Shown: one piece after another, positions 3,008 to 58,185 of the stretch
Layout: each line of letters opens with the position of its first letter
How positions within the stretch are numbered: position 1 is the first letter of the stretch
Notes under the pieces: generated by a model
Seen by the model: only the letters and a program-made list of their open reading frames with translations
The model's database searches: none
Told to the model about the DNA's origin: nothing
Made by a program: the position numbers and the translations under genes
Source of the DNA: Lampris incognitus
Taxonomy: Eukaryota > Chordata > Actinopteri > Lampriformes > Lampridae
Assembly: GCF_029633865.1 (NCBI RefSeq)
Contig: NC_079212.1
Span: 105,146,961-105,210,960, forward strand
DNA length: 64,000 bases
Direction: 5' to 3'

Positions 3008-4612
3008 CTTTATGCATGCTCAATAATCCAGGTAAGAAAATCACACAGTTGAATCACTTCATCTGGACACGTTTATTGAGAGAGAAATGTTTCATCACTC
3101 ATCTATGTGACCTCTTCAATCTCAACTGACTGCAAGTATCCCCACCCTTATAAACAACACAGTGGCATAATGACCGAAAACAACGATTTATTCATATGCA
3201 AATTGCCGTGAGCATTGCCTAGTGTTTCAATGGCCATGTGTACTATTCACAGAAGATTTGGGAATGGTTGCAATCAGAGCATTGTAAGATGGCGATAGAT
3301 GTACTTACTCTTAGGTCCCCCCTTCGGTTCAGGGATGATCGTTCCCTCTTGACATACTAGATGGCCTCTTTGACTCCCCATTCAAACCAGCATTCTTCCC
3401 TATCAAGGGGAGCAGCAGGGAGCAATACCAATATGTACCCTGCCTCTGCCAAATGACTGAGCTAAGCAGGTATGGGCTTGGCTAGTACTTGGGTGGAGAC
3501 CTCCCAGGAAAACTGAGTTGCTGCTGGAAGTGGTGTTGCTGGGCCAGTAGGGGGCAGTCTTCCTTCTGATCGGAATAAAAACAACAAATAACAAATCCCA
3601 ATGCCCCAGTGCAGTGACGGGGACATTGTGCTGTAGGAGATGCCGTCCTTCAGATGAGACGCTAAACCGAGGTCCTGACTCACTGGTCGTTAAAGATCCC
3701 ATGGCACTTATAGCAAAGTAGGGGGTTCCCTGGTGTCCTGACAAAATTCCCAATCCGGCTCTCTCCATCTGGCCACCCAATTATCCCCCCATGTAATTGG
3801 CTCAATGATTCCTCCCTCTCTACCTCAAGCTGATGTGTGGTGTCCGTTCTGGCACAAAATGGCTGCTGTGCATCACCCAGGTCGGTGCTACAAATTGGTG
3901 GTGGTTGACGTGAGTTACCCCCATCAATATGAAGCGCTTTGGGTGTCTAGAATAAAGCGCTATATAAATGTAACGATTATTATTATTATTATTAAGGATG
4001 TGCACATCCTCTTCCTTGAAAGAGTTGCCAATGGCCTGTAGATGGGTGAAGACTGCAGAGTCCTGGCCTGACGTGTTAGCGCTTCTGTGTTGTGCCATCC
4101 TCTTGGCCAGCGTCCGAAACCAAACAGACCCTAGCCAAGAGGATGGCACAACACAGAAGCGCTAACACGTCAGGCCAGGACTCCGCAGTCTACACCCACC
4201 TACAGGCCAGTGGCCACTCTTTCAAGGGTGAGGATCTCCACATCCTTCATAAGGAGGAACACTGATTTGAATGGGGAGTGCAAGAAGCCATCTATGTGAA
4301 ACGTGAACAACGACCTCTGAACCGAAGGGGGGAGGGCAAAGAGTACATCTGTCAACATTTTACAATGCTGTGATTGTAAACATTCCCGAATCCTCTGTGA
4401 ATAGTACATATGGCCATTGAAACTCAAGTTAATGTTCACGGCAATTTGCATATAACACTGATCGTTGGTTTCGGTCATTATGCCACTGTATTGTTTATAA
4501 GGGTGGGGATACCTGCAGAAAGTTCAGACTGAAGAGGTCATGTAGCTGAGTGACGAAACGTTTCTCTCTCAATGAACATTGAGTCCAGATGAACTGATTC
4601 AACTTTTGTCGA
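3008..4612. mobile_element. Foldback Penelope-like element with 15-bp target duplication
   Basis: Two partial copies of the same element lie head to head. The left arm is in minus orientation (3008-3404 and 3998-4112, split by a SINE) and the right arm in plus orientation (about 4127-4612). Both arms include the end of a GIY-YIG-like reading frame (right arm: LAKRMAQHRSANTSGQDSAV, later EAIYVKRE) followed by a 3' region with the hallmark ATGAACTGATTCAAC. The whole unit is flanked by ttttggagaaaatgt at 2993-3007 and 4613-4627. The right-arm frame has an internal stop. Assignment to PLEs rests on the GIY-YIG-like segment and inverted partial copies; another retroelement class is possible. Confidence 0.68.
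3409..3993 (+). mobile_element. 5S-rRNA-derived SINE (SINE3 type)
   Basis: The 5' part contains gctaagcagg, tagtacttgggtgg and gagacctccc (3461-3510), which follow the 3' half of vertebrate 5S rRNA in order. The body has the typical cagatgagacgctaaaccga and aaaatggctgctgtgcatca segments of fish 5S SINEs. The 3' end (gaagcgctttgggtgtctag, ataaagcgctatataaatg, then an att repeat) is a LINE-like tail. It interrupts the left arm of the PLE foldback, with aagg on both sides. Confidence 0.82.
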
Positions 4613-6357
4613 TTTTGGAGAAAATGTAAGTTATTTAATAGTAAGTGTTTTATGATGAACATACAATTGAAATTTTCATTAAATAAAAGTTACAAAAATG
4701 TGTATGCTGTCAATTGTAGCTCTTAGAAAAAAATTGGAATGTCCAAAATTGGAATTAACAGGATAGACTTAAAAAAAACAATACAAAAACGAATTGGCCA
4801 ATAAAATTGCAATCGGTGCATCTCTAATTGTTACTTTTTAAAAAAGATGATTATGAAGGCCCAGACCCAGGTGATTTACTCATTAGGGCTTCACTGTAGA
4901 AGGTTTCTCTGTCTGTCCCGTGTATGTATGTAATAATAATTATGTTTGTCAGAGCCACTTTTACCTGCCCAATCAAAGAAAAAGTAGCCCAATCTGGCAA
5001 CACTGCGAAGGAAAAAGAAAACAGGCGAACTTAAGGCTGAAGAGACCACTGCTGCTATGGCCAATCCAAGCGCTTCCTCCTTGTCTCATCCACCGACATT
5101 GTCATCAAGGGAGTGAGACAAGAAGGAGAAAAATCACTTTGAGAGCAAACTGTCTGAAAAAGACTAACATGACTACAGAATAAAAAGCACATTATAACGA
5201 ACTATGATTCTGAACTCATTACTGTTACTTATTTTTACTTGTTAATGTTAATTCTTCTTTAATTGTTATATTCTCAAACTCTTTAATAAATCCTTCTTGC
5301 ACCAAGCTGAATACTACTGAATGCATTAATTCAAATGTGGTACACTTTAGCGTTGAAACAGTTGAATTAATTTTTTGCATACAGTTAGTGTTACTGCTAT
5401 TATTACTGCATACTACTACAATATTGATTGAGAGTTGCATATGAGACCAAAATGACATACTAAATAGTAATAGCAAACTGCAATAGTAAAAAGCAAATTT
5501 TTTTTTTTGGCTGGTAATATCTGTCCAGTAATTTTTTTTTCATCTACCAGCAACCTTGGGAAGTAAGCCAACAAGTGTACCTGGTGGTGTGATTTGTTTA
5601 CATGTGTCCAATTGTGCTTTAGTTAGTGGTTTGATTTCCTTGTATATACCATAACAGCAGGCTAGGTTAGCCAGTGAGAGAAATAGACAATACTTACTTT
5701 TAATTTCCCTAACCAACATCAAGTCTTATTTCATGTTACTTAGTCAGACCTGAACCGTCTGTAACTTGAGATATAATTATTTGAAGTTTAATAGAGCTTT
5801 CACTTGTATTATAAACATTTAAGAGTGATACTGACAGGTTCTGCTCAGTTCTTTCTGGCAAAACTGCTTAACTGGGTTTCATCCATTAGCCTTGCAAAGG
5901 ACCTAAGCAAACAAGAATTTATGTTTAGAATTGTACTGTGATCCATCCCATCTTGTTTACAGTAAAAAATATGTAAACTGCAATAATCGAAAGAAAATCT
6001 ACAACAAAATGCATTTATGTGAATGCATAACACACTCTGTGTGTTGTGAAAGCTTAAAACCTGAGTATGCTTCTCTGGAAAGGCATTCAAACAATTCAAA
6101 TCCAAACAAGTGTAGAAATCATTAAATAAAACCTCTTCACAGCATCTACTATACCTCAACACTGTGAGTCAGGGAACTGTTGGTATTAAAATCAGGACAG
6201 CTCAGTATCAAAGTTACAATGAATCCAATTTCCCCCATCCCTTGCAAGAATGACACGTCTGTTTGATTGAAAACCGAGGTTCTTCTTCAAAGGGCAAACT
6301 ATATCCAACTAGGGTTCAGCTGTAAGCTCTCAAATAGCCTCCGATTTATTTTTTTCC

Positions 6358-17135: not shown

Positions 17136-17665
17136 CTCTTTATGCATGCTCAATAATCCAGGTAAGAAAGTTGAATCAGTTCATCTGGACACAACGTTTA
17201 TTGAGAGAGAAACTTTTCATCACTCATCTAAGTGACCTCTTCAGTCTAAACCAAAGAAAGTTGAATTGGTTCATCTGGATATAATGTTTGACAGATACGT
17301 CTTGATGCATGCTCAATAATCCAGGTAGTTCACATTCATATTGGCTTATGAAACTGATCGATGGTTTCGGTCGTTAATGCCACTATATAAGGGTGGGGAT
17401 ACCTGCAGTGAGTTGAGACTGAAAAGGTCACTTCGATGAGTGATGAAACGTTTCTCTCAATAAACGATGTGTTCGAATGAACTGATTCAACTTTCTTTGA
17501 TATTAACAGATACGTTTCATCACTCATCTAAGTGACCTCTTCAGTCTAAACTGACTACAGTTAAATAACGACTGAAACTAATGATCAGTTTCATACGCAA
17601 AATGACTCATGAAATTGATTGTTAGTTTTGGTCATTATGCAACTGTATTGTTACTGTAGGACATG
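17136..17665. mobile_element. Rearranged Penelope-like element ends
   Basis: Several pieces of the same PLE 3' region lie in mixed order and orientation. Minus pieces start with atgcatgctcaataatccag at 17144 and 17307; a plus piece covers 17340-17500 and ends with gaactgattcaactttc; another minus piece begins near 17510, and a short plus piece (17610-17655) closes the array. No clear flanking duplication was found. Confidence 0.6.
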
Positions 17666-18589: not shown

Positions 18590-18826
18590 TTCCTATTGTC
18601 CAAGATGGCGGCGTTGGTGCAGATTTTTTGATGCTGACATGATTTTAAACGACTTTGTCGTTTTATTTCTGAATATATGCAGCTGTCTACCATTTAAACT
18701 TTCATCCATCATTCACCGAAACCCTCGTTTGCCGTCTCAGTTTTGCTAACATCCCCGGAATCGCCAAACAGGGTAGGTTTCCCCTTTGCAGACGCCGAAA
18801 AGTTTGGTCTCCATCACCATTTGAAA
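18590..18826 (+). promoter_or_regulatory. rbm15b: rbm15b 5' region: YY1 motif and chained uORFs
   Basis: AAGATGGCGGC at 18602-18612 is a textbook YY1 site, usually placed just downstream of the transcription start in housekeeping genes. Its ATG opens a 9-codon uORF (18605-18631, stop included), whose stop overlaps a second uORF (18631-18642), which overlaps a third (18639-18749). The in-frame codon at 18743 is TTG, not ATG, and is not used as the start. Confidence 0.55.
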
Positions 18827-21370
18827 ATGAAAAGACAGGCCGGGAGAGAGACTAGTCCGTCCAGGGCTTTGGCTAAACGAATACGGGAAAGGGACCGAGA
18901 GAGTGCGCGGAGAGAGGAGTTGCCTCCGCCGCCGTTGGCTTTGCTGCTGGCGGATAGCCGGGCATACCACAAGCGGAGCCGCAGCAGGGAGCGGGAGAAG
19001 CCCCGGCTGAGAGAGGACCGTACTGCGGCCGCCTTGGAGCTCCACCACCGGCATGAACTCGGGCTCCTCGGCCGTCCTCCGCTACGGACTACCGCGGCGG
19101 ACATCGCCGGTTCGAGGCCGGGCACTTTGGAATATAAAACACTTCTTATTAGTAACCTCGGCTCGCAGGTTCCCGACGAAGACGTCGAGGACTCGCTGTT
19201 TCACGAGTTTAAAAAGTTCGGTGACGTTAGTGTGAAACTCTCGCATACACCAGAGCTGGGTCGGGTGGCATACGTGAATTTTCGGCATCCAGAGGACGCC
19301 AAGGAGGCGAAGCATGCTAAATCCAGCAGGTTAGTGTTGGGCGATCGTCAACTCAAAGTAGAGCCTATGTATGTTAGACGGAGGAGCGTCACGCCGCCGG
19401 ATGTTGGTTTTTTACCTCTGCACGTCCCGTACCCTTACCGGCAGCGCTCCCTCTCACCCCCGGGGCCGGGGGTAAGTAACCTCAGAGAGCTTAGAGCCAG
19501 ACAGTATGCCTTGGAGAGTCTGGGTCTGAGCAGAGAGAGGGAGAGGATCTTGGATTACTATGGTATGCTGGATGAGAGGGGCCGGCCCTATGGCCTCCCC
19601 CCCATGCCGGTGGTGGAGGATTTAAAACCTGAAGATGATCAGAGAGCAACGAGCAACCTTTTTATTGGAAATTTGGATCATAACGTTACAGAGGGGGAGC
19701 TCAGAAGGGGTTTTGATAAGTATGGGATTATTGAGGATGTCGTGATTAAGCGTCCTGCAAGAGGCCAAGGTGGAGCTTATGCTTTTGTGAAATTCCAGAA
19801 TTTGGACATGGCGCACAGAGCCAAAGTGGCCATGCAGGGGCGAATGATCGGTGGCAACCCGGTGAAGATTGGATATGGTAAAGCTAATCCCACCACGCGT
19901 CTCTGGGTCGGTGGTCTTGGGCCTGGGAATTCCCTTGCTGCCCTTGCACGTGAATTTGACCGCTTCGGTAGTATACGAAATATTGACTATGTTAAAGGGG
20001 ACAGTTTTGCTTACATTCAGTATGAAAGTTTGGATGCAGCCCAGGCTGCCTGCACACAGATGAGGGGTTTCCCTTTAGGAGGCCCTGAGCGCCGTCTGAG
20101 GGTGGACTTTGCCAAAGTGGAGGAAAGTCCCTCCCGTCCATTTCCCCCAGGTTATCAACCCCCGGTGCCGCTCCCCGCCCACTATGAACTTCTTGGTGAG
20201 GGGTATGGACGCCACTGGAGCCTTGAGCGGGAACTACGAGGAGCTCGAGATCGCTCCTCACCTTCCCCCCACAGCCTCCTCTCCCCGAGAGAAAGAGAGA
20301 GGGCCCTGCTGGAGAGAGACTATCCCAGCAGTCCCACACGCAGTTTGGAAAGGAGAGCAGGGGGAGTGGAGGCCTTTGGGAGAGGAGGGAGAAGTGCGAG
20401 GAGCCGCAGCAGGAGCAGGGAGCGCTGGCTGAAGGAGAGGGAGGAGAGACGGACCAGGAGGAGGAGCAGGAGTAGGAGTCTTTCCAATGACAGACTGACA
20501 GAGGAGAGGGAAAGAGAGAGGGAAAAGGAAAGGGGGCGGTCCAAGATTAGAGGCCAGGTAGGGCCCGTGTCTCCTGAGGCCAGCCCAGACCGGGCACGGG
20601 TTCGCGCACCAGACTCTACCACAGAGCCCAGAGACCACTCTCCGGACAATGGCGTTGGGGCAGCACCTTCTGCCATCAGTGAAGAAGACCCAGCTCCACC
20701 CCATAGCCGCCACCACGTCAAGAGATCTTCCATGGAGCATCTTAACAACCATCACCAAAGAAACAGTGATAGCACTGTGAATGCCAGCTCTTCTCCAGTG
20801 CTCACGAATGCACAGGACTCCCCTCCCAGTACGCTATCTGAATACGCCCAGGCCAGCCTTCCCAAGTCTTGGCACGGTTTCTTTGCGCTGAAAAATAGCA
20901 GCTTCCCCACAGACCTGTACTTGCTGGAAGGGGGCTCCTCCTTCTTTAATGCTGTGATGAAGGACAGCCTGAAGCTGCTGAGCCAAAACCAGCCCAGTCA
21001 GTTGAAGATTGCTCAGAGGCTCCGCATGGACCAAACCAGACTTGATGAGGTGACGCGGCGCATCAAGCAGGGACGACCGGATGGCTTTGCAATCCTGCTG
21101 GCACTCCAAGGCCCAATAGATCGTCATGCCCCTCCACCTGAGCCTGGGCTTCAGGTACGCTTGCTTCGTCACCTTGTGACTTACCTGCGGAACAAAGAAG
21201 CAGCTGGGGTAATAAGTCTCCATGCCACCAGAGAGGGGGGAACCGGGGCAATGCTGTATGCCTTTCCCCCTGGGGAGTTTTCACAGCAATACCTCCAGAC
21301 AGCCAAAAGGACTGTGGGAAATCTGGACGAGGAGCATATGGTTATTGTGATTGTCAGTGACACTAACTGA
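18827..21370 (+). CDS. rbm15b: RNA-binding protein 15B (spen family), single exon
   Basis: RBM15B is a nuclear SPEN-family adaptor that binds RNA and helps direct the WTAP/METTL3 m6A methylation complex; it also acts in splicing and nuclear export. The intact intronless frame encodes 847 residues from the first in-frame ATG (aaaATGA), which gives MKRQAGRETSPS, as in mammalian RBM15B (MKRQ start). Domains: low-complexity basic N-terminus; RRM1 about 102-180 (YKTLLISNLG, GRVAYVNFRH); RRM2 about 275-350 (NLFIGNLDHN, GGAYAFVKFQN); RRM3 about 357-432 (TRLWVGGLG, DSFAYIQYE); Arg/Ser-rich stretch about 515-575; SPOC domain about 668-847 (LSEYAQ, LKIAQRLRMDQTRLDEVTRR, ending EEHMVIVIVSDTN). Intronless structure matches mammalian RBM15B, whereas RBM15 differs in the linker. 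The neighbour manf is conserved in human. Confidence 0.97.
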   Translation: MKRQAGRETSPSRALAKRIRERDRESARREELPPPPLALLLADSRAYHKRSRSREREKPRLREDRTAAALELHHRHELGLLGRPPLRTTAADIAGSRPGTLEYKTLLISNLGSQVPDEDVEDSLFHEFKKFGDVSVKLSHTPELGRVAYVNFRHPEDAKEAKHAKSSRLVLGDRQLKVEPMYVRRRSVTPPDVGFLPLHVPYPYRQRSLSPPGPGVSNLRELRARQYALESLGLSRERERILDYYGMLDERGRPYGLPPMPVVEDLKPEDDQRATSNLFIGNLDHNVTEGELRRGFDKYGIIEDVVIKRPARGQGGAYAFVKFQNLDMAHRAKVAMQGRMIGGNPVKIGYGKANPTTRLWVGGLGPGNSLAALAREFDRFGSIRNIDYVKGDSFAYIQYESLDAAQAACTQMRGFPLGGPERRLRVDFAKVEESPSRPFPPGYQPPVPLPAHYELLGEGYGRHWSLERELRGARDRSSPSPHSLLSPRERERALLERDYPSSPTRSLERRAGGVEAFGRGGRSARSRSRSRERWLKEREERRTRRRSRSRSLSNDRLTEEREREREKERGRSKIRGQVGPVSPEASPDRARVRAPDSTTEPRDHSPDNGVGAAPSAISEEDPAPPHSRHHVKRSSMEHLNNHHQRNSDSTVNASSSPVLTNAQDSPPSTLSEYAQASLPKSWHGFFALKNSSFPTDLYLLEGGSSFFNAVMKDSLKLLSQNQPSQLKIAQRLRMDQTRLDEVTRRIKQGRPDGFAILLALQGPIDRHAPPPEPGLQVRLLRHLVTYLRNKEAAGVISLHATREGGTGAMLYAFPPGEFSQQYLQTAKRTVGNLDEEHMVIVIVSDTN

Positions 21371-25452: not shown

Positions 25453-25646
25453 GTCGATGCATGCTTAATTATCCAGGTAAGAAAATAAAAGAAGGTTGAA
25501 TCAGTTCATCAGGATACAACGTTTATTGACAGATACTTTTCATCACTCATCTTAAGTGACATCTTCAACCTGACTGAAGAGGTCACTTAGATGAGGGATG
25601 AAACGCATCTCAAACGTATCCAGATGAACTGATTCAACCTTTGATG
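25453..25646. mobile_element. Minimal foldback PLE end with 13-bp target duplication
   Basis: A 194-bp insertion: the left half is the reversed PLE 3' end (atgcatgcttaattatccag, then ttgaatcagttcatc and tcatcactcatc), and the right half is the same in forward orientation (gaagaggtcacttagatgag, ending gaactgattcaacctttgat). It is flanked by aaggggtctacct at 25440-25452 and 25647-25659. Confidence 0.75.
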
Positions 25647-26815: not shown

Positions 26816-26817
26816 TG

Positions 26818-27501
26818 TTCACATGGCCATTGAAACTAGTTAATGGTCACGGCGATTTGCATATGAAACTGATCGCTGTTTTTGGTCATTATGCCACTGT
26901 ATTGTTTATAAATAGAGTGGGAATACCTGCAGTCAGCTGAGACTGAAGAGGTCACTTAGATGCAGTGTTGTAGTACTCGAGTCCAGGACTCAGACTCAAG
27001 TCCGACTCGAGTCCTGATTTTCAAGACTCGTGACTCGACTTGGACTTGAGCACTGATGACTCGCACTTGGACTTGGACTCGAGCATTGATTGCATTTGGA
27101 CTCTGGAGATGAGGAATCGAACTTGTTAATTGATAAAGACTGTTTTTGTTAGTTTTTTTGTAATAGGCCCTAATAATTTGGCATAAGATATTGATAGCTA
27201 TATTAATACCGTAACATTATTAAATTTTGTGCAATGGCAGCCATGTGTGTTCCACCTACATGTGGATTCACATGCCTACCCTCATGTTGGAGGTCATGAG
27301 CCCATCTTCTTCAACCTTGAGGACTCGGACTCAGGTAATAGGGACTTGACTCGGATTCGACTCGGACTCTTCTTTGGGGACTCGGACTCGACTCAGACTC
27401 GATGTTTAGTGACTCGACTACAACACTGCTTTGATGAGTGATGAAATGCTTCTCTGTCAATAAACATTGTGTCCAGATGAACTGATTCAACTTTCTGTGA
27501 T
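26818..27501 (+). mobile_element. Truncated Penelope-like element end interrupted by a MITE
   Basis: A plus-oriented PLE 3' region starts at tcacatggccattgaaac, runs through gaagaggtcacttagatg, is broken by a hAT-type MITE (26963-27428), and resumes as ctttgatgagtgatgaaatg, ending with gatgaactgattcaactttc. Confidence 0.62.
26963..27428. mobile_element. hAT-like MITE rich in GACTCG motifs
   Basis: Ends cagtgttgtagtactcgagt and gtgactcgactacaacactg share an 11-bp perfect inverted terminus (CAGTGTTGTAG). The flanks cttagatg (26955-26962) and ctttgatg (27429-27436) are 8-bp target duplications with one mismatch. The ends are packed with GACTCG/CGAGTC repeats (over a dozen). No coding capacity. 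Confidence 0.75.
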
Positions 27502-36372: not shown

Positions 36373-36654
36373 CCTTGCCTCCAGAGTTGATTGGATTGGA
36401 TTGCATTTACAGGCAAAAGGGCATGGACGAACAAAACCTTTGTCATCCCCCCGACTCCTCCAACCACGTTTAAAAACATACACAAGAGCTGGGATTCAAC
36501 CCTGTGTGTGTGAGTGTGAGTTTGTATATATCTATGTGTGTATGCATGCATGCGTGTGTGTGTGTGTGGGTGCCTGCATCAATGTATTTCCTTCGTCTTT
36601 TTCAAAGAAAATCTTATAGACACCTTGTTGTTTAATGCATCTTGGAAAAAGGCA

Positions 36655-37145
36655 ACATGATCAAACAAAGACGCTGGCCAGGAGGATGGCACAACACAGG
36701 ACAGCCAACACGTCAGGCCAGGCCTCCGCAGTCTACACTCATCTACAGGCCAGTGGCCACTCTTTCAAGGAGGAGGTTGTGCACATCCTTGATAAGGAGG
36801 AATGCTGGTTTGACTGGGGAGTCGAAGAGGCCATCTATGTGAAGAGGGAATGACCACCCCTGAATGGACGGGATAACTCTGTCACCATTTTACAATGCTG
36901 TGATTGCAACTATTCCCAAATCCTCTGTGAACAGTACACATGGCCATGGTAACTCTAGTTAATGCTCACGGCAATTTGCATATGAAACCGGTCGTTGGTT
37001 TCGGTCGTGATGCCGCTGTATTGTTTATAAGGGTGGGGATACCTGCAGTCAGTTGAGACTAAAGAGCACACTTAGATGAGGGATGAAATGTATCTGTTCA
37101 TAAACATGGTATCCAGATGAACTGATTCAACCTTCCTTGATAAAC
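36655..37145 (+). mobile_element. Penelope-like element 3' end with GIY-YIG-like fragment
   Basis: The first 200 bases encode TKTLARRMAQHRTANTSGQA, SAVYTHLQASGHSFKEE and WGVEEAIYVKRE, which fits the C-terminal GIY-YIG nuclease part of fish PLEs (R-x-x-x-H, and the later Glu); the N-terminal GIY and YIG motifs and all of the reverse transcriptase are missing. The 3' region ends gaactgattcaaccttcctt and abuts the CT tract at 37152. Confidence 0.65.
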
Positions 37146-37150
37146 AAAGC

Positions 37151-37258
<108 letters not shown>

Positions 37259-39506: not shown

Positions 39507-40037
39507 CAGCAACACATAAACATAAGCTTTTTGGTGCTGTTTCTTACTCTCTTACTCTCAGTGTCTTTTCTAATTATTTTTGCATTTATCTGCTATTGAG
39601 AGTCTTTGCTTTCTGTAAAGCACTTTGTAATACACTATGTTTGGAAGCGCTCTACTGAAACGTGGCAATCTTGTCAGTGATAACCAGCCTAAATATCAGT
39701 CTGGAGAGCCATCACCCATTAGACTACAAATGTTTGCAGCAGCTGCTAGCTAATAGGCTGGCTCCCTCATATTCTGCTGTGTACTTCCTTTTGTTTGATC
39801 ATTTTAAAAATTTGATGCCCATGTCCTACTGTTGTGGGCAAAGGGTTCCCACGACACAGTCACTCTCCATTTGAGTTTTGAATGAATACATTAGCGTGAA
39901 TAAAACTGTGCTACATCAAGATCTACTGTCACAGAATGTTTGAGCAGAGCAACAATCTCACCTCCTCACCCTAGCCGAAATTCATGACAGGTGCACGGCG
40001 GTACACTTTTTTTTGCACAGTCTCTCGCTGTCATTTA

Positions 40038-41252
40038 CACCGATTAGCCAAAACATGAAGAACACCTGCCTAACATTGTGTAGCCCCCCCCCTTGCCACC
40101 AAAATCAGCTCAGACCTGTCGAGGCATGGACTTCACAGGTCCTCTGAAGGTTTTCCTCTGGTATGTGGCACCAAGACATTAGCAGCAGATCCTTTAAGTC
40201 CTGTAAGTTGTGAGGTGGGGCATCCATGTTTTGGACTTGTTTTCCAGCACACCCCACAGATGCTCGGTCAGGTTGAGAGCTGGAGAATTTGGGGGCCAAG
40301 GCAACACCTTTGAACTCTTCATCAGGGTCGTCAAACATTCCTGAACAATGTGTGCAGTGTGGCAGGGCACATTATCCTGCTGAAAGAGGCCACTGCCATC
40401 AGGGATCACCGTTGCCATGAAGGGGTGTACCTGGTCTGTAACAATGTTTAGGTAGGTGGTACGTGTCAAAGTAACATCCACATGAATGCCAGGACCCAAG
40501 TTTTCCCAGCAGAACATTGCCCAGAGCATCACACTGCCTCCATCGGCTTGCTTCTTCCCATAGTGCATCCTGGTGCCAGCTCTTCCCCAGGTAAACGACG
40601 TGCACGCACTTGGCCATCCACATGATGTAAAAGACAACATGATTCATCAGACCACCCCACCTTCTTCCATATCTCCATGGTCCAGTTCTGACGCTCACAT
40701 GCCCATTGTAGGTGCTATTGGCAGTGGACTGGGTTCATCATGGGCACTCTGACTGGTCTGCAGCTATGCAGCCCCATACGCAACACGCTGTGATGCACTA
40801 TGTTGTGACACCTGTCTGTCATCGCCAGCATTAACTTGTTCAGCAATTTAAACTAAAGTAGCTCTTCTGTGGGATCGGACCAGATGGGCTAACCTTCGCT
40901 CCCCACGGGCATCAATGAGCTTTGGGCATCCATGACCGTCACCAGTTCACCAGTTGTCCTTCCTTGGACCACTTTTGGTAGGTACTGACCACTACATACC
41001 AGGAAAACCCCACAAAACCTGTCATTTGGAGATGCTGTGACCCAGTCGTCTAGCCATCACAATTTGGCCCTCGTCACAGTTGCTCAGATCCTTATGCTTG
41101 CCAATTTTTCCTGCTCCCAACACATCAACATCAAGAACTGCCTGTTCACTTGCTGCCTAATATATCCCACCCCTTGACAGGTGCTATTGTAATGAGATAA
41201 TCAATATTGTTCATTTACCTGTCAGTGGTTTTAATGTTTTACTTGATCATTT
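40038..41252 (-). mobile_element. Tc1-like DNA transposon, dead copy (family A)
   Basis: A 1.2-kb element with ends caccgattagccaaaacatg and (reverse) a degenerate ccattaaaaccac-type end, flanked by TA at 40036-40037 and 41253-41254. The minus-strand transposase shows GSVMLWAMFCWENLGPGIHV, TTYLNIVTDQVHPFMATVIP, LFQQDNVPCHTAHIVQE and PNSPALNLTEHLWGVLENK, so the DDE core is recognisable. The start codon is changed to ATT (near 41113) and the N-terminal part is shifted; it cannot make a full transposase. Confidence 0.88.
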
Positions 41253-47418: not shown

Positions 47419-48610
47419 AATCAGCCAAAACATTAAAACCACCTACAGGTAAGTGAACAACACTGATTATCTCATTAGAGTGGCACCTGTCAAGGGGTGG
47501 GACATATTAGGCAAGTGAACAGTCAGTTCTTGAAGTTGATGTGTTGGAAGCAGGAAAAATGGGCAAGCATAAGGATCTGAGCGACTTTGACAAGGGTCAA
47601 ATTGTGATGGCTAGATGACTGGGTCAGACCATCTCCAAAACAGCAGGTTTGTGTGGTGTTCCCATTATATAATGGTCAGTAGCTACCAAAAGTGGTCCAA
47701 GGAAGGACAACTGGTGAACCGGCGACAGGATCATGGATGCCCAAGGCTCAGTGATGTGCATGGGAAGCAAAGGCTATCCCATCTGGTCCAATACCACAGA
47801 AGAGCTACTTTAGTTCAAATTGCTGAAAAAGTTAATGCTGGCTATGATAGACAGGTGTCAGAACACACAGTGCATCACAGCTTGCTTTGTATGGGCTGCA
47901 TAACCGCAGACCAGTCAGAGTGCCCATGATGACCCGTCCACTGCCAAAAGAGCCTGCAATGAGCGTCAGAACTGGACCATGAAGCAATGGAAGAAGGTGG
48001 CCTGGTCTAATTAATCATGTTTTCTTTTACATCATGTGGATGGCTGGGTGTGTGTGCGTCATTTACCTGGAGAAGAGATGACACCAGGATGCACTATGGG
48101 AAGAAGGAAAACCGGTGGAGGGAGTGTGATGCTCTGGGCAATGTTCTGATGGGAAACCTGGCATTCACGTAGCTGTTACCTTGACATGTACCACTTACTT
48201 AAACATCGTTGCTGAGCAGCTACACCCCTTCATGGCAACTGTATTCCCTGATGACAGTGGCCTCTGTCAGCAGGATAATGTGTCCTGCCACGCTGCACAC
48301 ATTGTTCAGGGATGTTTGAGGAGCATGACAAAGAAGTCAGGGTGTTGCTTTGGCCTCCAAATTCTCCAGATCTCAATCTGATTGAGCATCTGTGGAATGT
48401 GCTGGAAAAATAAGTCTCATCAATTGAGGCCCCACCTCGCAACTTATAGGACTTAAAGGATCTGTTGCAAACGTCTTGGTGCCAGATACCAGAGGATACC
48501 TTCAGAGGTCTTGTGGAGTCCATGCCTCGATGGGTCAAAGCTTTTTTGAAGGCACGAGGGGGACCTACACAGTATTAGGTGGGTGGTTTTAATGTTTTGG
48601 CCAATTGCTG
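47419..48610 (+). mobile_element. Tc1-like DNA transposon, dead copy (family A)
   Basis: Same family as the element at 40038 but in plus orientation, inserted at the end of an AT run (47397-47418). Termini: aatcagccaaaacattaaaa and gggtggttttaatgttttgg. Translation begins at ATG 47559 with [19 protein letters not shown] and hits TGA at 47616, where related copies have an Arg CGA codon; more lesions follow. The frame's natural end TQY-stop is near 48577. Confidence 0.9.
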
Positions 48611-51111
48611 TATACTATATATCTATATATATATATATGCTGTTGCTCTGCAACGTGTGAAAACTCAACTCTCCTGGCTTTGTTCAGTATTGCTTTCTTT
48701 ATTGTTACTGTGTTAGTAGAGAAGTCAGTGCAATGAGCATAGCCTGGGTTGTAAAAAATATCCATCTCAACAAATTATTTGGTCTCGCATTAAGTCTTAC
48801 AAATTCCGTTTTCTCAAAGGGAGTTCGACTGAAAAAAAAACTGCCATTGAGCTGAGATAACTTCAAGCGAGTTTTCACCCAAATCAATAAATAAAAAAAT
48901 CGCCTGTAAGAAAGTGTTGATAACATGAGCAGGCCAGCCACAAATTGTATTAGAACCATAAGAAACATGAATTAATCTACTCTTAGTTTTCCACTTGCTT
49001 CAAAGAAAACAAGATTTCAAGACGAAAGATCACAAGACCAAATTACTTGTTGAAATTACTTGTTTCTGTGTTTGAGTGAGACTGCATGTGAGTGTTTGTG
49101 TGCGTGTGCATTTTTTTTTATTGTGTTTAAACCTATGATCTGTGTTTGTTTGTATGTTAGTTATACTGAGCAAACATGCAGCATTAGTCTGACTCTGAAA
49201 AGGCCAGCGACCCCTCAGGGGACCAGCCAATTTGGAGAAACACTTCCGTCGTTTCTTTCACACAAGAGAGGAAGGACTCAGCCACAGAACTACAATAAGC
49301 AGAGCAACCATTCCTCATCAGCTGTGCAAGCCAGTGTCACCATGATAAACCGGGGAGCATCCAGTCGATCCACCGCATTGCCAGGAGTTTCAGTCTTGCA
49401 TGCACGACCATAATAGACGAGACAATGTCTGTTATAGTCCATCCTGAAGTGGACACAGATGACCCTAGTTTCCCCAGCAGTTTTCAGTTCTACATATCCC
49501 ACAATACAAGTAATGTTTAACACAAATGAGCATGGTACACCTAGAGGTGGCTATTCTATCTATATTCTAGATGTAAAAATGGCAGTCTACCTGAAAAACA
49601 AAATGGCACACCAGGAAATGTTGATTCTATCCATTATAATTCCATGAGAAGTGGACTGCATACATACTGCAAGTGCACCAAAAAACAAAACAAAAACAAA
49701 ATAAAAAAACAAAAAAAAACTAGTCTATAAATTTTAAATCTAAGTTGGGCATTAATATAATATCGAGGTACATGAGGATATATGCCAGTTCTATTCATTC
49801 TAAATATATAATAATAAATCATGGTGGTCTACTTGGAGGCCAAAAGGAAGTGGCGATTCTACTCTATTCTAGTTCTGTGGGTGCTTACATTGGAGAAGCA
49901 GGGCCAACGTTTATAAAGACGTCTCTGGTTAGACGACGTGTAGCATCACGTATCATGGAGTGAGAATAAGTGGAAACGCTATTATTCAAACAAACAAAAA
50001 ACATCTGGTCATTTTCATTAATAGTACAGTGTTCATATAGTCAGGAGAACAAAAACACCACCACATATGTGGGCAGAAAGAAATATCTATTTGTTACTGA
50101 GCCAAAGTAGACTCCAAACGTCGGGGGGAAAGGAAATCTAGTAGTTGTGTACAGTATTTAGCGGTCATAAAAGAGATAAAAAGAAAAAAAACTTTCATGG
50201 CTGTAAATGTAACACTTGTCTTAATAAGTTAGAAAATAATTTAAACAACACATTTCAAATCAACCGTGAACAAACGCGTGTAAAAACTATTAACGCAAAG
50301 GAAGAGGTTTTTAAACCTGCTGTTTTTTTCTTCTTTTTTTCTTAAAAAAAAAACAACAACTTTACAGCAAATACTAAAAATAAAGAAAATAAAGAAGAAA
50401 GGAAGTTGTATACAGGAAATGGTCATACACAGGAAGTAGACATCATTGTATATAAAAGCCAAGTCATTCAGCTCAGTGTTAGTGACTGGTGATATATAAA
50501 CTCTCTGAGGGGATATTCCTTATTAGTCAATAAATACGAGAGTATTAAATAGAGTTGGAAGAGGGGGGTCAGAAAGAGACAGGGAGACACACAGGGAGGA
50601 GAAAAGCTGAGTAGTCTCTATGGCTTGTTAGAGGCTGTATGGCCCAGTAACCTTAAGCGACAGTATTTTTGGTAGCTAACAACACCTTATAACCCTCCCA
50701 ATTTGTCTCTGGTTTGGGGCAGATCTAAAAAAAAAAAAAGGAAGTCAAAGAAGGATTTCTGCTAATACACAGGGATGATGTTCAGCTATACTGAAAGACG
50801 CCCGCTTAGATACTCGAATAACTGTCAGCATCAGCATCTGTCACTCCGCTAAAACACTGTACACCTTCAACCTCTCTCCTTCTGGCACAGACAGAGATTG
50901 AGAAAGAGAGAGAGAGAAAGTTAAAAGGAAAGCACATTAGTGAGAGAGCAAGAAAACCTGGGAAAGAACTGGAAAATAAAATGAATAATGACAAAACAAA
51001 AAAAAAAGAAAAAGGAACACCTGCCCTTCCCATCTGTCAAACTTGCTTCATTATTCCCCACTAGCTACCTTCAGTAACACCAACTCCCTTCCTCCACCTC
51101 CGCCACCTCCA
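48611..51111 (-). other. pcbp4: Probable pcbp4 3' UTR and flank
   Basis: AT-rich DNA downstream of the pcbp4 stop codon, without another gene. I could not settle on a poly(A) signal, as several TTTATT (AATAAA on the minus strand) occur. Confidence 0.35.
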
Positions 51112-51550: not shown

Positions 51551-52636
51551 CTGGAGGGGGGGAGGGGCAGGGAGAGGAGGTCGAGGGAGAGGAGCAGGAG
51601 GTGGAGGGAAGGGTGGGTGGAGGGAGGGACCGAGAGGGGGCAGGGAGAGGGAGGTTTGGATGGAGAAGGGTTAGAAGGTTAAATAAAAGACATGTTAAAG
51701 AAAGAAATTGAGAGGAGAAAAAAATGTAAAATAAAATTCAAACAACAAAAAAAGGATATATTGGACAGGAAAACAAAAAGGAAATTTGTAAATCAAAATC
51801 ATAAGACAGGTGTGTTTTGCTGGAGGTTGCAACAGATTATTGTAGGGGAGTTCGCTGTTCGGATGGGGGGTGTGCTGTTTAAGTTGGGGTGATGGCTTGG
51901 GAGGGGGCTTAGGGAGGAGGGGACAAAACCATTGCAGAAATATTAGGATGGGATCTCTGTGTCAGAAATATCTCCATTTCAAACACAACAGGAAACATCA
52001 CCATCAAACCGCATTCACATCAAGGCTACTCACGCCCTCCGATGCCAAATATATAGTTTTAGTACAGTTGGAGGGGGATTCATGGCGTCTCTAACAGAAT
52101 CAAAGGTTATCTTCTACAAATGGAAGAAAAAAAAAACCCCAGCCTGACAGATGGGCATGGGTGCGGAAGGAGATAACAAAACCATTAAACACATATTAGA
52201 AGTAAACTCAATTTTCAAAAGGTCCCATATTAAACTAAACACAGTGTTGGATTGAGGTTTATAAAAGCTCTCTTAACCCAAAACCAAAAGGGCCCATTTT
52301 TTGTTTTGTTTAAATGCTTACCTCACCAAGTTACCCTACTTTAAATATGCCAGCTATTCTTTTATATGCCAGCAATTTCCTGTTTCCTGATGGCAGGTTT
52401 CAAGTTTTGACAAGGAGCAAGGAATCAGGTTGTTTATTGACAGAAACAGCAGTTATTCTTAGAATCAAGCCCGTTTCAAGTCTGCTCACAAAATTCAGCA
52501 GAAAACAACACAGGAAATTGCAGCCGCGCCGATGACGAGCCGGCATCTCACTCACAGTGAATATGGCAGTTTTTATCTACAAAGTTAAAAAAGGGTTTTG
52601 GTTAAAAAAAAGAAAAAGAAGTGAAACTGAAGTTGT

Positions 52637-53137
52637 CTTTATGCATGTTCAATGATCCAGGTAAGAAAATCACAGAAAGTTGAATCAGTTCATCTGGACA
52701 CAACGTTTATTGAGGGAGAAACGTTTCATCACTCATCTAAGTGACCTCTTCAGTCTCAACTGACTGCAAGTATCCCCACTCTTATATAAACAATATGTGG
52801 CATAGTGACCGAAACTAACGCCCAGTTTCATATGCAACCCCCCCCCCCTCGGTTCCGGGATCAGACTCGCTATCAAGATGCGCACATCCTTGCTGCGATT
52901 GCAACCATTCCCAAACCTTCTGTGAATAGTACACATGGCCATTGAAACTCTAGTTAATGGTCATGGCAATCTGCATATGAAACTGGGCGTTGGTTTCGGT
53001 GGTTATGCCACTGTGTTGTTTATAAGGGTGGGGATACCTGCAGTCAGCTGAGACTGAAGAGTCACTTATAGCTGAGTGGTGAAACGTTCTCCCAATAAAC
53101 ATTGTGTCCAGATGAACTGATTCAACCTTCTGTGATA
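52637..53137. mobile_element. Foldback Penelope-like element with perfect 13-bp target duplication
   Basis: The left arm is a reversed PLE 3' region (atgcatgttcaatgatccag, ttgaatcagttcatctgg, tcatcactcatctaagtgac) and the right arm a forward one (tgaatagtacacatggccat, ending gatgaactgattcaacct). The arms meet at a C-rich junction near 52839-52870. The unit is flanked by aaactgaagttgt at 52624-52636 and 53138-53150, identical on both sides. Confidence 0.78.
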
Positions 53138-54950
53138 AAACTGAAGTTGTTTCTCCAAAACTCATAGTTGGCTCATGATTGCTACATGTGACCAATTATA
53201 AGAACAACTTCAATCTGAGTTTTAACCTTTTCTAACAGGAAAGTATCAATCCTGGATATTTCCATGCAAGCAAAAACCCTTTGTGACAAATTCTATTGCT
53301 GGTGTATTAAAGGCAACAGCAAGAGGAAGCTAAGCTGTATGGCTCACAAGCAGATATGGTAGAACAAGACTGTGAAAGGCCATTACTGACAGTGGGGAAG
53401 GTGCTGATGTGACAGTAATGGTGCCTATTTCGTTTTAAAATGCATTTTGAATGAAACTCTGGGATTTGGACTGCTCAGACACCACCACAATTACCATGTC
53501 TCACCCAAGGTATCAGTAAGTTGAACAAAAATACCAAGTTCAGGGCTGAAACTTCTGTAAAAGATCACATGACCTTTCAATTCAAATGACTCTTTTTTTT
53601 TGTGCAGTGTGTATCTAAAAGTTGCCGGATACAACACAAACATATTTCTAATGGCTGTATAACCGGTAGTGATTATCCCATGACAAAAACTAAGGATAAA
53701 TAGCGTAAAAATGTAAAGGTTTCAGATGACATTTGAAATACTTTAAGTTTTAACAAAGAGTCTATCAGGGGTTTTAATTTACGTCACTTTTTATAATATT
53801 TGGTCAAACCCTTTTTACATCCCGACAGCTGTCAAGTAAGCAGATGCACATCTGGTCTCTGTGGCCATGCTAGCTGCTGTAAACAGGTACTGTTTTGCTG
53901 TCATTTGCTGTAAGTAAATGCTATAAACATCGTCTCTGTACCCGCTCCTTATCAGCCAATCAGGGGAGTACTTTGCAAGCTGGCGTCTCCATTGGTCCAT
54001 ACTTGTTGTCAATCACTTTATGCTTTCAAAAGGATGCTGGGTAGAGGTGAGGGTGCTGATTCTTTTGCAGATTGTTTTCAAATTATAGCTAACTTATCCT
54101 CATTTTAACTATCGAATACTGTCTGTTCCACCAAAAGTCAACACACTGGCAATAATGAGCCTTTATGGACAGTTTTGTAAGGTAAAATGCAACACAACCT
54201 TTGCAATTTAAATCCATTAAAAGCCCAATCTTTGGACAGGATTACTTCACTAAGTTCACATGTTAAGACCAGAATGGTCAGTACTGATTGACAAAGCAGC
54301 TGTGTTTACCATGCTCACAGGTAACACACGAACACACACACATGCACGGGTACACACATACATATAACAAATGAATAAAGAAGCACAAAGACAGACACAG
54401 ACACAAATACACAATCACACAAAGAAACACAAACACACATTTGTGCACAGAAAAGCACATGCAACAATGACCACAAACATACACACACTGTACAACAGGG
54501 TCTAATAGAAATTCAACACAGCTTCCAGGTCGAAAAAAAATTTCTGTGCAGGTATTGTGAATGAATTTGCAGTATCTCAATACTATGGAATGCTTTAAAC
54601 TTTAAATATATTCTGTTTGATCAAGTAGAGCAAACAGAATATATTTATATCACGTTTGATGCATAATAACTGACAAGGACTGCCTCAATATTGAAGCCAC
54701 AACTTCAAAGAAAAAGGCAGAGATTTTATCTCACACTATGTGTTAATTAAACCCAAGTTTTCTCACTGGTCACAGACACATTTCAACTATGGAAAAAGTT
54801 TATTGGCTACGATACCACCTCTTGTGGAAACTAAGGAGCTTGTGATCTTTAATTTTCCCCCCTCATATTTTATACACATTTTTGACCTGCAAGTACACTT
54901 GCATGTACACTAACTCAAGCACTTAGATAAAAAAAAATCATCCTCATTTC

Positions 54951-55033: not shown

Positions 55034-55064
55034 TATGATCAAGTAGAGCATATACACATATATA

Positions 55065-56261
55065 CACTACCGTTCAAAAGTTTGGGATCACCCAAACAAT
55101 TTCGTGTTTTCCATGAAAAGTCACACTTATTCACCACCATATGTTGTGAAATGAATAGAAAATAGAGTCAAGACATTGACAAGGTTAGAAATAATGATTT
55201 GTATTTGAAATAAGATTTTTTTTACATCAAACTTTGCTTTCGTCAAAGAATCCTCCATTTGCAGCAATTGCAGCATTGCAGACCTTTGGCATTCTAGCTG
55301 TTAATTTGTTGAGGTAATCTGGAGAAATTGCACCCCACGCTTCCAGAAGCAGCTCCCACAAGTTGGATTGGTTGGATGGGCACTTCTTTGAGCAGATTGA
55401 GTTTCTGGAGCATCACATTTGTGGGGTCAATTAAACGCTCAAAATGGCCAGAAAAAGAGAACTTTCATCTGAAACTCGACAGTCTATTCTTGTTCTTAGA
55501 AATGAAGGCTATTCCATGCGAGAAATTGCTAAGAAATTGAAGATTTCCTACACCGGTGTGTACTACTCCCTTCAGAGGACAGCACAAACAGGCTCTAACA
55601 GGTACTATTTAATGAAGATGCCAGTTGGGGACCTGTGAGGCGTCTGTTTCTCAAACTAGAGACTCTAATGTACTTATCTTCTTGCTCAGTTGTGCAACGC
55701 GGCCTCCCACTTCTTTTTCTACTCTGGTTAGAGCCTGTTTGTGCTGTCCTCTGAAGGGAGTAGTACACACCGGTGTAGGAAATCTTCAATTTCTTAGCAA
55801 TTTCTCGCATGGAATAGCCTTCATTTCTAAGAACAAGAATAGACTGTCGAGTTTCAGATGAAAGTTCTCTTTTTCTGGCCATTTTGAGCGTTTAATTGAC
55901 CCCACAAATGTGATGCTCCAGAAACTCAATCTGCTCAAAGAAGTGCCCATCCAACCAATCCAACTTGTGGGAGCTGCTTCTGGAAGCGTGGGGTGCAATT
56001 TCTCCAGATTACCTCAACAAATTAACAGCTAGAATGCCAAAGGTCTGCAATGCTGTAATTGCTGCAAATGGAGGATTCTTTGACGAAAGCAAAGTTTGAT
56101 GTAAAAAAAATCTTATTTCAAATACAAATCATTATTTCTAACCTTGTCAATGTCTTGACTCTATTTTCTATTCATTTCACAACATATGGTGGTGAATAAG
56201 TGTGACTTTTCATGGAAAACACAAAATTGTTTGGGTGATCCCAAACTTTTGAACGGTAGTG
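55065..56261. mobile_element. Tc1-type snapback element with 535-bp inverted arms
   Basis: Termini cactaccgttcaaaagtttg are inverted at both ends, with TA at 55063-55064 and 56262-56263. The arms 55065-55599 and 55727-56261 are inverted copies of each other with about two mismatches where I compared them. Each arm encodes the same transposase N-terminus (MARKRELSSETRQSILVLRN, then HTH EIAKKLKISYTGVYYSLQ). The 127-bp spacer continues the minus-strand copy (QSRKRSGRPRCTTEQEDKYI, then RVSSLRNRRLTGPQLA). It is thus a 5' fragment of a Tc1 element joined to an inverted duplicate; no catalytic domain. Confidence 0.93.
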
Positions 56262-56267
56262 TACATA

Positions 56268-57903
56268 CAGTGCATCCGGAAAGTATTCACACCCCTTCAC
56301 TTTCCCCACATTTTGTTATGTTACAGCCTTATTCCAAAATTGATTAAATTCCCTTTTTCTCTCATCAATCTACACACAATACCCCATAATAACAAAGCGA
56401 AAAAGATTTTGTAGAAATTTTTGCAAATTCATTAAAAATAAAAAACTGAAATATTGCATGTACATAAGTATTCACACCCTTTACTCAGTACTTGGTTGAG
56501 GCACCCTTGGCAGTGATTACAGCCTCAAGTCTTCTTGGGTATGAAGCTATAAGCTTGGCACACCTATATTTGGGGTATTCCTCCCATTCTTCTCTGCAGA
56601 TCCTCTCGAGCTCTGTAAGGTTAGATGGGGAGCGTCGCTACACAGCTACTTTCAGGTCTTTCCAGAGATGTTCAATGGGGTTCAGGTCTGGGCTCTGGCT
56701 GGGCCACTCAAGGACATTCACAGACTTGTCCCGAAGCCACTCCTTCATTGTCTTGGCTGTGTGCTTAGGGTCATTGCCGTGTTGAAAGGTAAACCTTCGC
56801 ACCAGTCTGAGGTCCTGAGTGCTCTGGAGCAGGTTTACATGAAGGATCTCTCTGTACTTTGCTCCATTCATCTTTCCCTCGATCCTGACTAGTCTCCCAG
56901 TTCCTGCCACTGAAAAACATCCCCACAGCATGATGCTGCCACCACCATGCCTCACTGTAGGGATGGAATTAGCAAGGTGATGAGAGGTGCTTGGTTTCCT
57001 CCAGACGTGACATTTGGCATTCAGGCCAAAGAGTTCAATCTTGGTTTCATCGGACCAGAGAATCTTGTTTCTCATGGTCTGAGAGTCCTTTAGGCGCTTT
57101 TTGGCAAACTCCAAGCGGGCTGTCATGTGCCTTTTACCGAGCAGAGGCTTCCGTCTGGCCACTCTACTGTAAAGGCCTGATTGGTGGAGTGCTGCAGAGA
57201 TGGTTGTCCTTCTGGAAGGTTCTCCCATCTCCACAGAAGAACGCTGGAGCTCTGTCAGAGTGACCATCGGGTTCTTGGTCACCTCCCTGACCAAGGCCCT
57301 TCTCCCCCGATTGCTCAGTTTGGCTGGGGGGCCAGCTCTAGGAAGAGTCCTGGTGGATCCATCTTCTTCCATTTACAAATGATGGAGACCACTGTGCTCT
57401 TCGGGACCTTCAAAGCTGTAGACATTTTTTTGTACCCTTCCCCAGATCTGTGCCTCGATACAATCCTGTCTCGGAGGTCCACAGACAATTCCTTTGACTT
57501 CATGGCTTGGTTTCTGCTCTGACATGCACTGTCAACAGTGGGACCTTATATAGACAGGTGTGTGCCTTTCGAAATCATGTCCAATCAATTGAATTTAGAG
57601 CAGGTGGACTCCAATCAAGATGTAGAAACATCTCAAGGATGATCAGTGGAAACAGGATGAACCTGAGCTCAATTTTGAGTGTCATAGCAAAGGGTGTGAA
57701 TACTTAAGTACATGCAATATTTCAGTTTTTTATTTTTAATAAATTTGCAAAAATTTCTACAAAACCTTTTTCGCTTTGTCATTATGGGGTATTGTGTGTA
57801 GATTGATGAGAAAAAAAAGGAATTTAATCCATTTTGGAATAAGGCTGTAACATAACAAAATGTGGGGAAAGTGAAGGGGTGTGAATACTTTCCGGATGAA
57901 CTG
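56268..57903 (-). mobile_element. Tc1-like DNA transposon, nearly intact (family B)
   Basis: Termini cagtgcatccggaaagtatt and (reverse) cagttcatccggaaagtatt are inverted; TA flanks at 56266-56267 and 57904-57905. The minus-strand transposase region runs from ATG at 57503 to a stop at 56485-56487, with the HTH part LRDRIVSRHRSGEGYKKMST and the DDE parts [34 protein letters not shown] and [18 protein letters not shown]. Only two lesions are evident: a one-base deletion near 57370 after ICKWKK and a TAG (about 56635) where a Gln codon stands in relatives. Confidence 0.92.
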
Positions 57904-58185
57904 TAATACATATATATAGGCTTGTACTGTCTCATAAAGGATTTACTTGAATCACTGGATTATTTTGCTCCTTATTTGTTGAGCACTTTTCCTACCGTTG
58001 AGTGTTTCTTTTAAAGACGTTTTATATATATATGTATGTCCACAGGATGTTGCAATAAAACCCTCGATGTAGAAAAAAGAGCTCAGCAATATAGGAGCAA
58101 AGATATATTTTTTATAGCTCAAAGTTGTTAAATGGCACAACAAGCTTGTTTTGTGCTCAATGCATCAGCTGCCTACATGGTTACA

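What the first reader, a model, noticed from the sequence alone, without database searches (positions are those of the whole stretch)
52637..53137. Foldback PLE insertion with identical 13-bp flanks
The unit consists of two PLE 3' ends in inverted orientation and is bounded by aaactgaagttgt on both sides. The flanks show that the head-to-head structure was inserted as one unit, or made during one insertion, and is not a later rearrangement. That points to a twin-priming or template-switch product as the normal form of this short element.
Basis: partly seen in the sequence, partly recalled or inferred. Interest (0 to 1): 0.72.

Follow-up and report, generated by a model that had tools for sequence, protein, structure and literature searches.

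The report
Two-armed retroelement insertion in animal DNA
This is an old, short insertion that looks like a Penelope-type jumping gene whose two arms point away from each other; such copies are already described, but the few here share regular features that hint at how these elements copy themselves into both DNA strands.

Summary
52637-53136 is an inverted-repeat insertion with exact 13-bp flanks (13 of 14 in register). It is best read as a Penelope-like element (PLE) copy; coding evidence for that is indirect.

I count six further copies in the window: A and C are simple inverted pairs like this one, Bi has a left piece of 27 nt of tail only, Bo is complex, E and F have one arm. (1) Each of the five two-ended copies carries the 32-nt terminal extension (PLE 'tail'; 27 nt in Bi) on its left piece; six of six readable right ends lack it and stop at the same ...GAT. 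(2) With ends set by homology, the target duplication is 14 bp in four of four copies with both ends readable. (3) No two centres coincide, yet in A, C and D both arms stop within 10 nt of each other.

So it is one insertion. L1-style twin priming does not fit, since both arms repeat the same 3' end; nor does an inherited foldback, since centres differ. Best explanation: reverse transcription primed from both nicked strands, from the two start sites known in vitro for an Anolis PLE, the cDNAs joined head to head. Inverted, tailed PLE copies are published. The host genome search did not complete (13 tries).

The parts
52624..52636 (.). Left copy of the target-site duplication, AAACTGAAGTTGT (14 bp in register from 52623, 13 of 14)
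52637..52668 (-). 32-nt 'tail' at the outer end of the left arm, absent from the right arm
   Evidence: tail as a PLE feature: passages of PMC3846280 and PMC11167929
52637..52890 (-). Left arm, inverted 3' end of the element; maps to consensus 497-313, then 210-193 and 131-111 with gaps (the consensus lacks part of the tail)
52875..52890 (.). Centre of the foldback: AAGATGCGCACATCCT, self-complementary at 12 of 16 positions, at the place of a perfect 16-bp palindrome (AGGATGTGCACATCCT) in the window consensus (111-126)
52891..53136 (+). Right arm, forward 3' end of the element, consensus 233-480, ends ...TGTGAT without tail
53138..53150 (.). Right copy of the target-site duplication
3008..4613 (.). 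Copy A: inverted pair, arms about 500 nt, left arm tailed and interrupted by a SINE-like insert (about 3409-3988); duplication TTTGGAGAAAATGT, 14 of 14
17138..17652 (.). Copy Bo, complex: tailed reverse piece (to 17251), then a second, untailed reverse piece (17245-17289 and 17508-17604), then a short forward piece (17609-17652); right end lost; no duplication found; split by Bi
17301..17501 (.). Copy Bi, nested in Bo: left piece is 27 nt of tail only, right arm about 160 nt; duplication 12 of 14 in register
25453..25645 (.). Copy C: inverted pair, arms about 115 and 74 nt, left arm tailed; duplication 13 of 14
26817..27501 (+). Copy E: single forward arm, no tail, no duplication seen by eye, interrupted about 26963-27428
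36670..37141 (+). Copy F: single forward arm, 5'-truncated, no tail; AAACAAAG at both ends (a short word found 5 times on the + strand of the window); carries an endonuclease-like reading-frame remnant

Best explanation
52637-53136 is a decayed, non-autonomous inverted-repeat copy of a Penelope-like element. The element's protein nicked both target strands about 14 bp apart. Each freed 3' end primed reverse transcription of an element RNA near its 3' end: one strand started at the site after ...GAT, the other 32 nt further out, at the end of the tail. The two cDNAs, of the same sense, ran towards each other and were joined at their leading ends, helped by short complementary or palindromic sequence. 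This left a head-to-head pair of 3' ends with a duplicated target. Shown here: ends, tails, duplications, centres. Shown by others in vitro for another PLE: nicking and extension on both strands, two start sites. Inferred: two RNA templates, joining by annealing, a paired enzyme complex.
For: The tail is on the left piece of five of five two-ended copies; six of six readable forward ends (A, Bi, C, D, E, F) lack it and stop at the same GAT. The duplication is 14 long in four of four two-ended copies with both ends readable: 14, 13, 13 and 12 of 14 identical, against at most 7 matches at any other length from 8 to 19. Inner ends of the two arms lie within 10 consensus nt in 4 of 5 copies (2 of 120 re-pairings do as well); without the complex copy Bo 3 of 4 (1 of 24), and for the three simple pairs A, C, D 3 of 3 (1 of 6). 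D's centre lies on a 16-bp palindrome of the consensus; C's can be read as a shared GACTG (my reading). Arms of one copy (84.0, 82.9, 84.3%) are no more alike than arms of different copies (73.7-94.9%). PMC11167929 (main text section seen): the Anolis PLE protein cleaves and extends both strands and starts at two adjacent internal sites whose interval is the tail.
Against: PMC11167929 found no difference in start site between top and bottom strands, so a one-tailed, one-untailed rule is not predicted by it. Few copies support the rule, all from one window and all facing the same way. Bi's left piece is tail only, so its inner ends are about 167 nt apart. Bo holds a second, untailed reverse 3' end in its middle, which the model does not explain without a second event. 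Centres of A and Bo show no clear complementarity. That arms differed before insertion rests on a weak contrast: duplications differ at 4 of 56 positions, arms of A, C, D at 94 of 585 (Fisher p 0.049), but p is 0.071 once the inner part of A's arms is added. D's arms share GGGC where A_R, Bi, E and a Bo piece have GATC, which suggests one source or conversion. No reverse transcriptase is in reach, and Pfam and PDB did not recognise the endonuclease-like remnant.
Confidence: 0.52

Rival explanations
1. Self-priming: one strand is copied, its end folds back at a palindrome and copies itself, giving the inverted arm. This is the published reading for rotifer PLE inverted repeats (on an antisense template).
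For: Inner ends of the arms coincide in A, C, D (and Bo), and D's centre lies on a consensus palindrome, as PMC3846280 reports palindromes at inverted junctions in Adineta vaga (Discussion read). D's arms share GGGC.
Against: A self-copied arm should end where its template arm ends, but in A, C and D the left arm is 32 nt longer. Arms of one copy are not specially alike.
Confidence: 0.22
2. The template was a transcript of an existing foldback master copy, copied right through; slippage across the RNA hairpin shortened both arms equally and gave different centres.
For: Left pieces all start at the same place. Four alignment columns separate left-arm from right-arm majorities (one of them at the ragged 3' end), and the right arms of A and D share AGCTGAG.
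Against: No two centres are shared. The left end would have to be an exact RNA 5' end, while published work places both tail ends at reverse-transcription starts. Four columns in ten short, decayed sequences is weak.
Confidence: 0.13
3. A foldback DNA transposon or MITE, not a PLE.
For: Long inverted repeats and a fixed duplication length are usual for DNA transposons (recalled). The window holds another foldback at 55059-56267. The reading-frame remnant is not recognised by Pfam or PDB.
Against: Ends are unequal. E and F are truncated and single-armed. A and F carry versions of one reading-frame remnant, 82-83% identical to F's, whose differences favour later codon positions (4, 14, 21 at positions 1-3, pooled over non-independent pairs).
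Confidence: 0.07
4. L1-style twin priming of a single RNA.
For: Gives inverted 5' ends with duplicated targets (recalled).
Against: It would invert an upstream segment, not repeat the same 3' terminus in both arms.
Confidence: 0.02
5. Two separate insertions or a later inversion.
For: Nested insertion does occur here (Bi in Bo), and Bo looks like more than one event.
Against: For D and three other copies one duplication encloses both ends.
Confidence: 0.02

Closest known systems
Penelope elements of Adineta vaga, e.g. Pen2a_Av (PMC3846280; passages seen, Discussion)
   Same: Inverted head-to-head pseudo-LTRs, palindromes at inverted junctions, a 31-bp tail 'optionally present' on one of the inverted pLTRs, target duplications.
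   Different: In the passages seen these flank an ORF, a derivative of one or a captured host gene, with duplications of 8-10 bp or none. Here copies are short, without reverse transcriptase, with 14 bp in four of four readable two-ended copies.
Poseidon PAc of Anolis carolinensis (PMC11167929; passages, main-text section)
   Same: Two end points some 30-40 nt apart that define the tail.
   Different: PAc has a hammerhead ribozyme; no hammerhead was among the Rfam matches here. PAc is described as tandemly repeated.
PLE structure in the TE curation guide (PMC8969392; passages seen)
   Same: Lists inverted pLTRs, short 3' extensions and 5' truncation as known traits.
   Different: No mechanism or rule is given in the passages seen.
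LINE-1 twin-priming inversions (recalled)
   Same: Inversion made during target-primed reverse transcription, duplicated target.
   Different: The inverted part is the upstream half of the same RNA, not a second 3' end.

Membership tests
Penelope-like elements | Telomerase-like reverse transcriptase domain | not testable with these tools
   No copy found in the window reaches upstream of the endonuclease-like remnant; own-genome search did not complete in 13 tries (first, last).
Penelope-like elements | GIY-YIG endonuclease at the C-terminus | tested here: inconclusive
   A and F hold a remnant TLAKRMAQHR...AIYVKRE that I recall as PLE endonuclease C-terminus; Pfam gave only efThoc1 at E 0.029, below its cut-off, or nothing; PDB nothing or nothing better than E 0.37; no relatives in viral or prokaryote contigs.
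Penelope-like elements | Terminal repeats found inverted, head to head | tested here: met
   A, C, D plainly; Bo in a complex form; Bi only as a tail-length left piece; E and F not.
Penelope-like elements | Optional 30-40 nt 'tail' on one end | tested here: met
   32 nt in A, C, D; cut short in Bo and 27 nt in Bi; five tails, all on left pieces.
Penelope-like elements | 5' truncation and target-site duplication on insertion | tested here: met
   Inner ends of arms beyond the tail range from consensus 1 to 397 (A and F nearly coincide). Duplications: 14 bp in register in A, Bi, C, D, an 8-bp common word in F, none found in E and Bo.
Penelope-like elements | Hammerhead ribozyme in the pLTR (common, not universal; recalled) | tested here: not met
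   No hammerhead among the three matches each at E up to 10 in 52400-53400 and 36640-37160, and no family at gathering score in the window. Not treated as defining.
Foldback DNA transposon | Equal terminal inverted repeats as both ends of every copy | tested here: not met
   Left arm longer by 32 nt in A, C, D; E and F lack one arm.

The most novel reading that the evidence does not exclude
PLE insertion is a concerted two-ended reaction: a paired enzyme complex cuts both strands at a fixed 14-bp stagger and primes each strand from a different one of the two RNA start sites, so that every complete event leaves one tailed and one untailed end. Single-armed copies are events where the second side failed. 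The tail would then be a strand-specific mark of one half-reaction.
Probability: 0.27. Interest if true: 0.65.

Novelty: new member of a known kind. Interest (0 to 1): 0.35.

Why it matters
[quoted passage not shown] If the one-tail and 14-bp regularities hold genome-wide, short foldback copies are ready-made records of both half-reactions, and the long-noted tail and inverted arrangement would get one common cause.

Tried and rejected
Own-genome search with the 501-bp unit: 13 tries, none answered. So copy counts, young copies and empty sites are untested. Exact patterns of the 3' end and of the tail: no match in viral contigs; the 3'-end pattern: no match in prokaryote contigs. Endonuclease-remnant alignment: 16 and 120 stretches matched a peptide pattern, none confirmed as relatives. 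Hammerhead: none by Rfam. RNA folding of the tailed arm: z-score 0.00. A small hairpin spanning the start sites appears in its centroid, and C shows one two-sided change in it by my reading; three sequences, not pursued. Print search for a 14-bp PLE duplication: four papers listed; for PMC3846280 and PMC8969392, of which I saw passages, the listing counts no '14 bp'; the other two were seen as listing only. A search for twin priming with Penelope listed nine papers, none opened.

Changes made on checking: Bo and Bi are no longer counted as plain inverted pairs, the inner-end test is given without them, and the arm-versus-duplication contrast is given with all of A's arms, where it loses significance. 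Odds for the best explanation went from 0.58 to 0.52 and for the novel case from 0.30 to 0.27 for these reasons.

Full report
Observation. The 13-bp repeat AAACTGAAGTTGT flanks the unit exactly and occurs nowhere else in the window. Between the repeats lie two inverted arms, 87.1% alike by BLAST over 171 columns, 84.3% over 166 ungapped pairs. The right end is 53136; base 53137 is the one mismatch of a 14-bp duplication in register.

The family in the window. BLAST of the unit against the window, motif scans and a profile scan lead me to seven copies: A 3008-4613, Bo 17138-17652, Bi 17301-17501 nested in Bo, C 25453-25645, D 52637-53136 (the finding), E 26817-27501 and F 36670-37141. A, C and D are simple inverted pairs. 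Bi has a left piece of 27 nt of tail only. Bo is complex: a tailed reverse piece, then a second, untailed reverse 3' end, then a short forward piece, with its right end lost. E and F have one forward arm. The tail motif occurs five times, always on a left piece (0.01 expected). The 3'-end motif occurs 11 times, 5 on the minus and 6 on the plus strand (0.05 expected); one of the minus ones is Bo's untailed second piece.

Ends. Six of six readable forward ends (A, Bi, C, D, E, F) stop at ...GAT; five of five left pieces begin at the same homologous place, 32 nt further out in A, C and D. With both ends so set, I scanned duplication lengths 8 to 19. In A, Bi, C and D length 14 gives 14, 12, 13 and 13 matches; no other length gives more than 7. 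Bo shows nothing at any of these lengths. F has AAACAAAG at both ends, a word that occurs five times on the + strand; E shows none by eye. A caution: I had seen the repeats before setting the ends, and the ends of A and C carry changes, so the figure could be 13 with an extra base.

Centres. On a 502-nt window consensus (it lacks part of the tail) the inner ends of left and right pieces are A 7/1, D 111/113, Bo 309/319, C 397/394, Bi 478/311. Four of five agree within 10 nt, and 2 of 120 re-pairings do as well. Bo's inner end belongs to its second reverse piece; without Bo it is 3 of 4 (1 of 24), and for A, C, D alone 3 of 3 (1 of 6, the smallest possible). No centre is shared between copies. 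D's centre, 52875-52890, is self-complementary at 12 of 16 positions and lies on the only 16-bp perfect palindrome of the consensus; D's right arm then skips to consensus 233 and its left arm has its own gaps. Palindromes at inverted junctions are reported for rotifer Penelopes (PMC3846280).

Age and templates. Arms of one copy are 84.0% (A), 82.9% (C) and 84.3% (D) alike, within the range between different copies (73.7-94.9%). Duplications of A, Bi, C and D differ at 4 of 56 positions; arms of A, C and D at 94 of 585 (p 0.049). With the inner part of A's arms added (90% alike over 128) p is 0.071. With D counted as 13 bp (3 of 55) the values are 0.020 and 0.031. Duplications are also recognised by likeness. 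So pre-existing differences between arms are a hint only. D's arms share GGGC where A_R, Bi, E and a Bo piece have GATC, which points to one source or to conversion between arms.

Is it a PLE? For: the inverted arrangement, the 32-nt tail, 5' truncation, target duplications, and a reading-frame remnant in A and F that I recall as the C-terminal PLE endonuclease. Its versions in A are 82-83% identical to F's, and nucleotide differences fall 4, 14, 21 on codon positions 1-3 (pooled over non-independent pairs). Against or missing: no accepted Pfam or PDB match, no reverse transcriptase in reach, no hammerhead. The host is probably a ray-finned fish: I recall the repeat from fish, and the window has an RBM15-like gene. 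The taxon was not tested.

Mechanism. In vitro, an Anolis PLE protein cuts and extends both strands and starts copying at two internal sites; the stretch between them is the tail, and the authors see no start-site difference between strands (PMC11167929). Copies here look like both half-reactions frozen in one place: one arm from each start site, joined head to head. The self-priming reading of PMC3846280 explains matched inner ends but not the longer, tailed arm. A foldback master explains fixed left ends but not five different centres. L1 twin priming does not give the same 3' end twice. Why the tailed piece is the left one in five of five cases is unexplained (1 in 16 by chance for all facing one way).

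Novelty. Inverted, tailed, duplication-flanked PLE copies are in print, and PMC3846280 already says that the tail is optionally on one of the inverted repeats. In the passages and sections I saw of three papers (PMC3846280, PMC11167929, PMC8969392) I met no claim that exactly one end of each pair is tailed, nor a constant 14-bp duplication. The listings cover PubMed Central papers under open licences only, and two further papers that I looked up were not held. So this is a new member of a known kind with a testable regularity.

Noticed in passing
55059-56267: A 1.2-kb near-perfect palindrome (94%), one end CACTACCGTTCAAAAGTTTGGG and the other its near complement, beside TA: a foldback DNA-type element that abuts the next item.
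   Followed up: partly
56266-57905: Tc1-like transposon with 220-bp inverted repeats (96%) and a transposase remnant (HTH_Tnp_Tc3_2, DDE_3).
   Followed up: partly
40036-41240 and 47427-48612: Two inverted copies of one sequence, 84% alike; the first holds a DDE_3 transposase remnant.
   Followed up: no
26963-27428: Insert in copy E with ends CAGTGTTGTAGT...ACTACAACACTG and an 8-bp near-duplication cttagatg/ctttgatg: hAT-like by recall.
   Followed up: no
3409-3988: SINE-like insert with a 5S-rRNA-like stretch (recalled) and an ATT-repeat tail, inside the left arm of copy A.
   Followed up: no
4110-4121 and 36670: Both arms of A and the single arm of F end within about 10 nt of the same point in the endonuclease-like remnant: a possible RNA 5' end or strong stop.
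   Followed up: no
3012, 17142, 17305, 25457, 52641: All five tails face the same way in the window, as do single arms E and F; unexplained.
   Followed up: no
17245-17300 and 17508-17604: A second, untailed reverse 3' end inside copy Bo, directly after its tailed piece: a tandem or second event.
   Followed up: no
18698-21367: Open frame of 890 aa with RRM and SPOC domains, RBM15/RBM15B-like by recall.
   Followed up: partly
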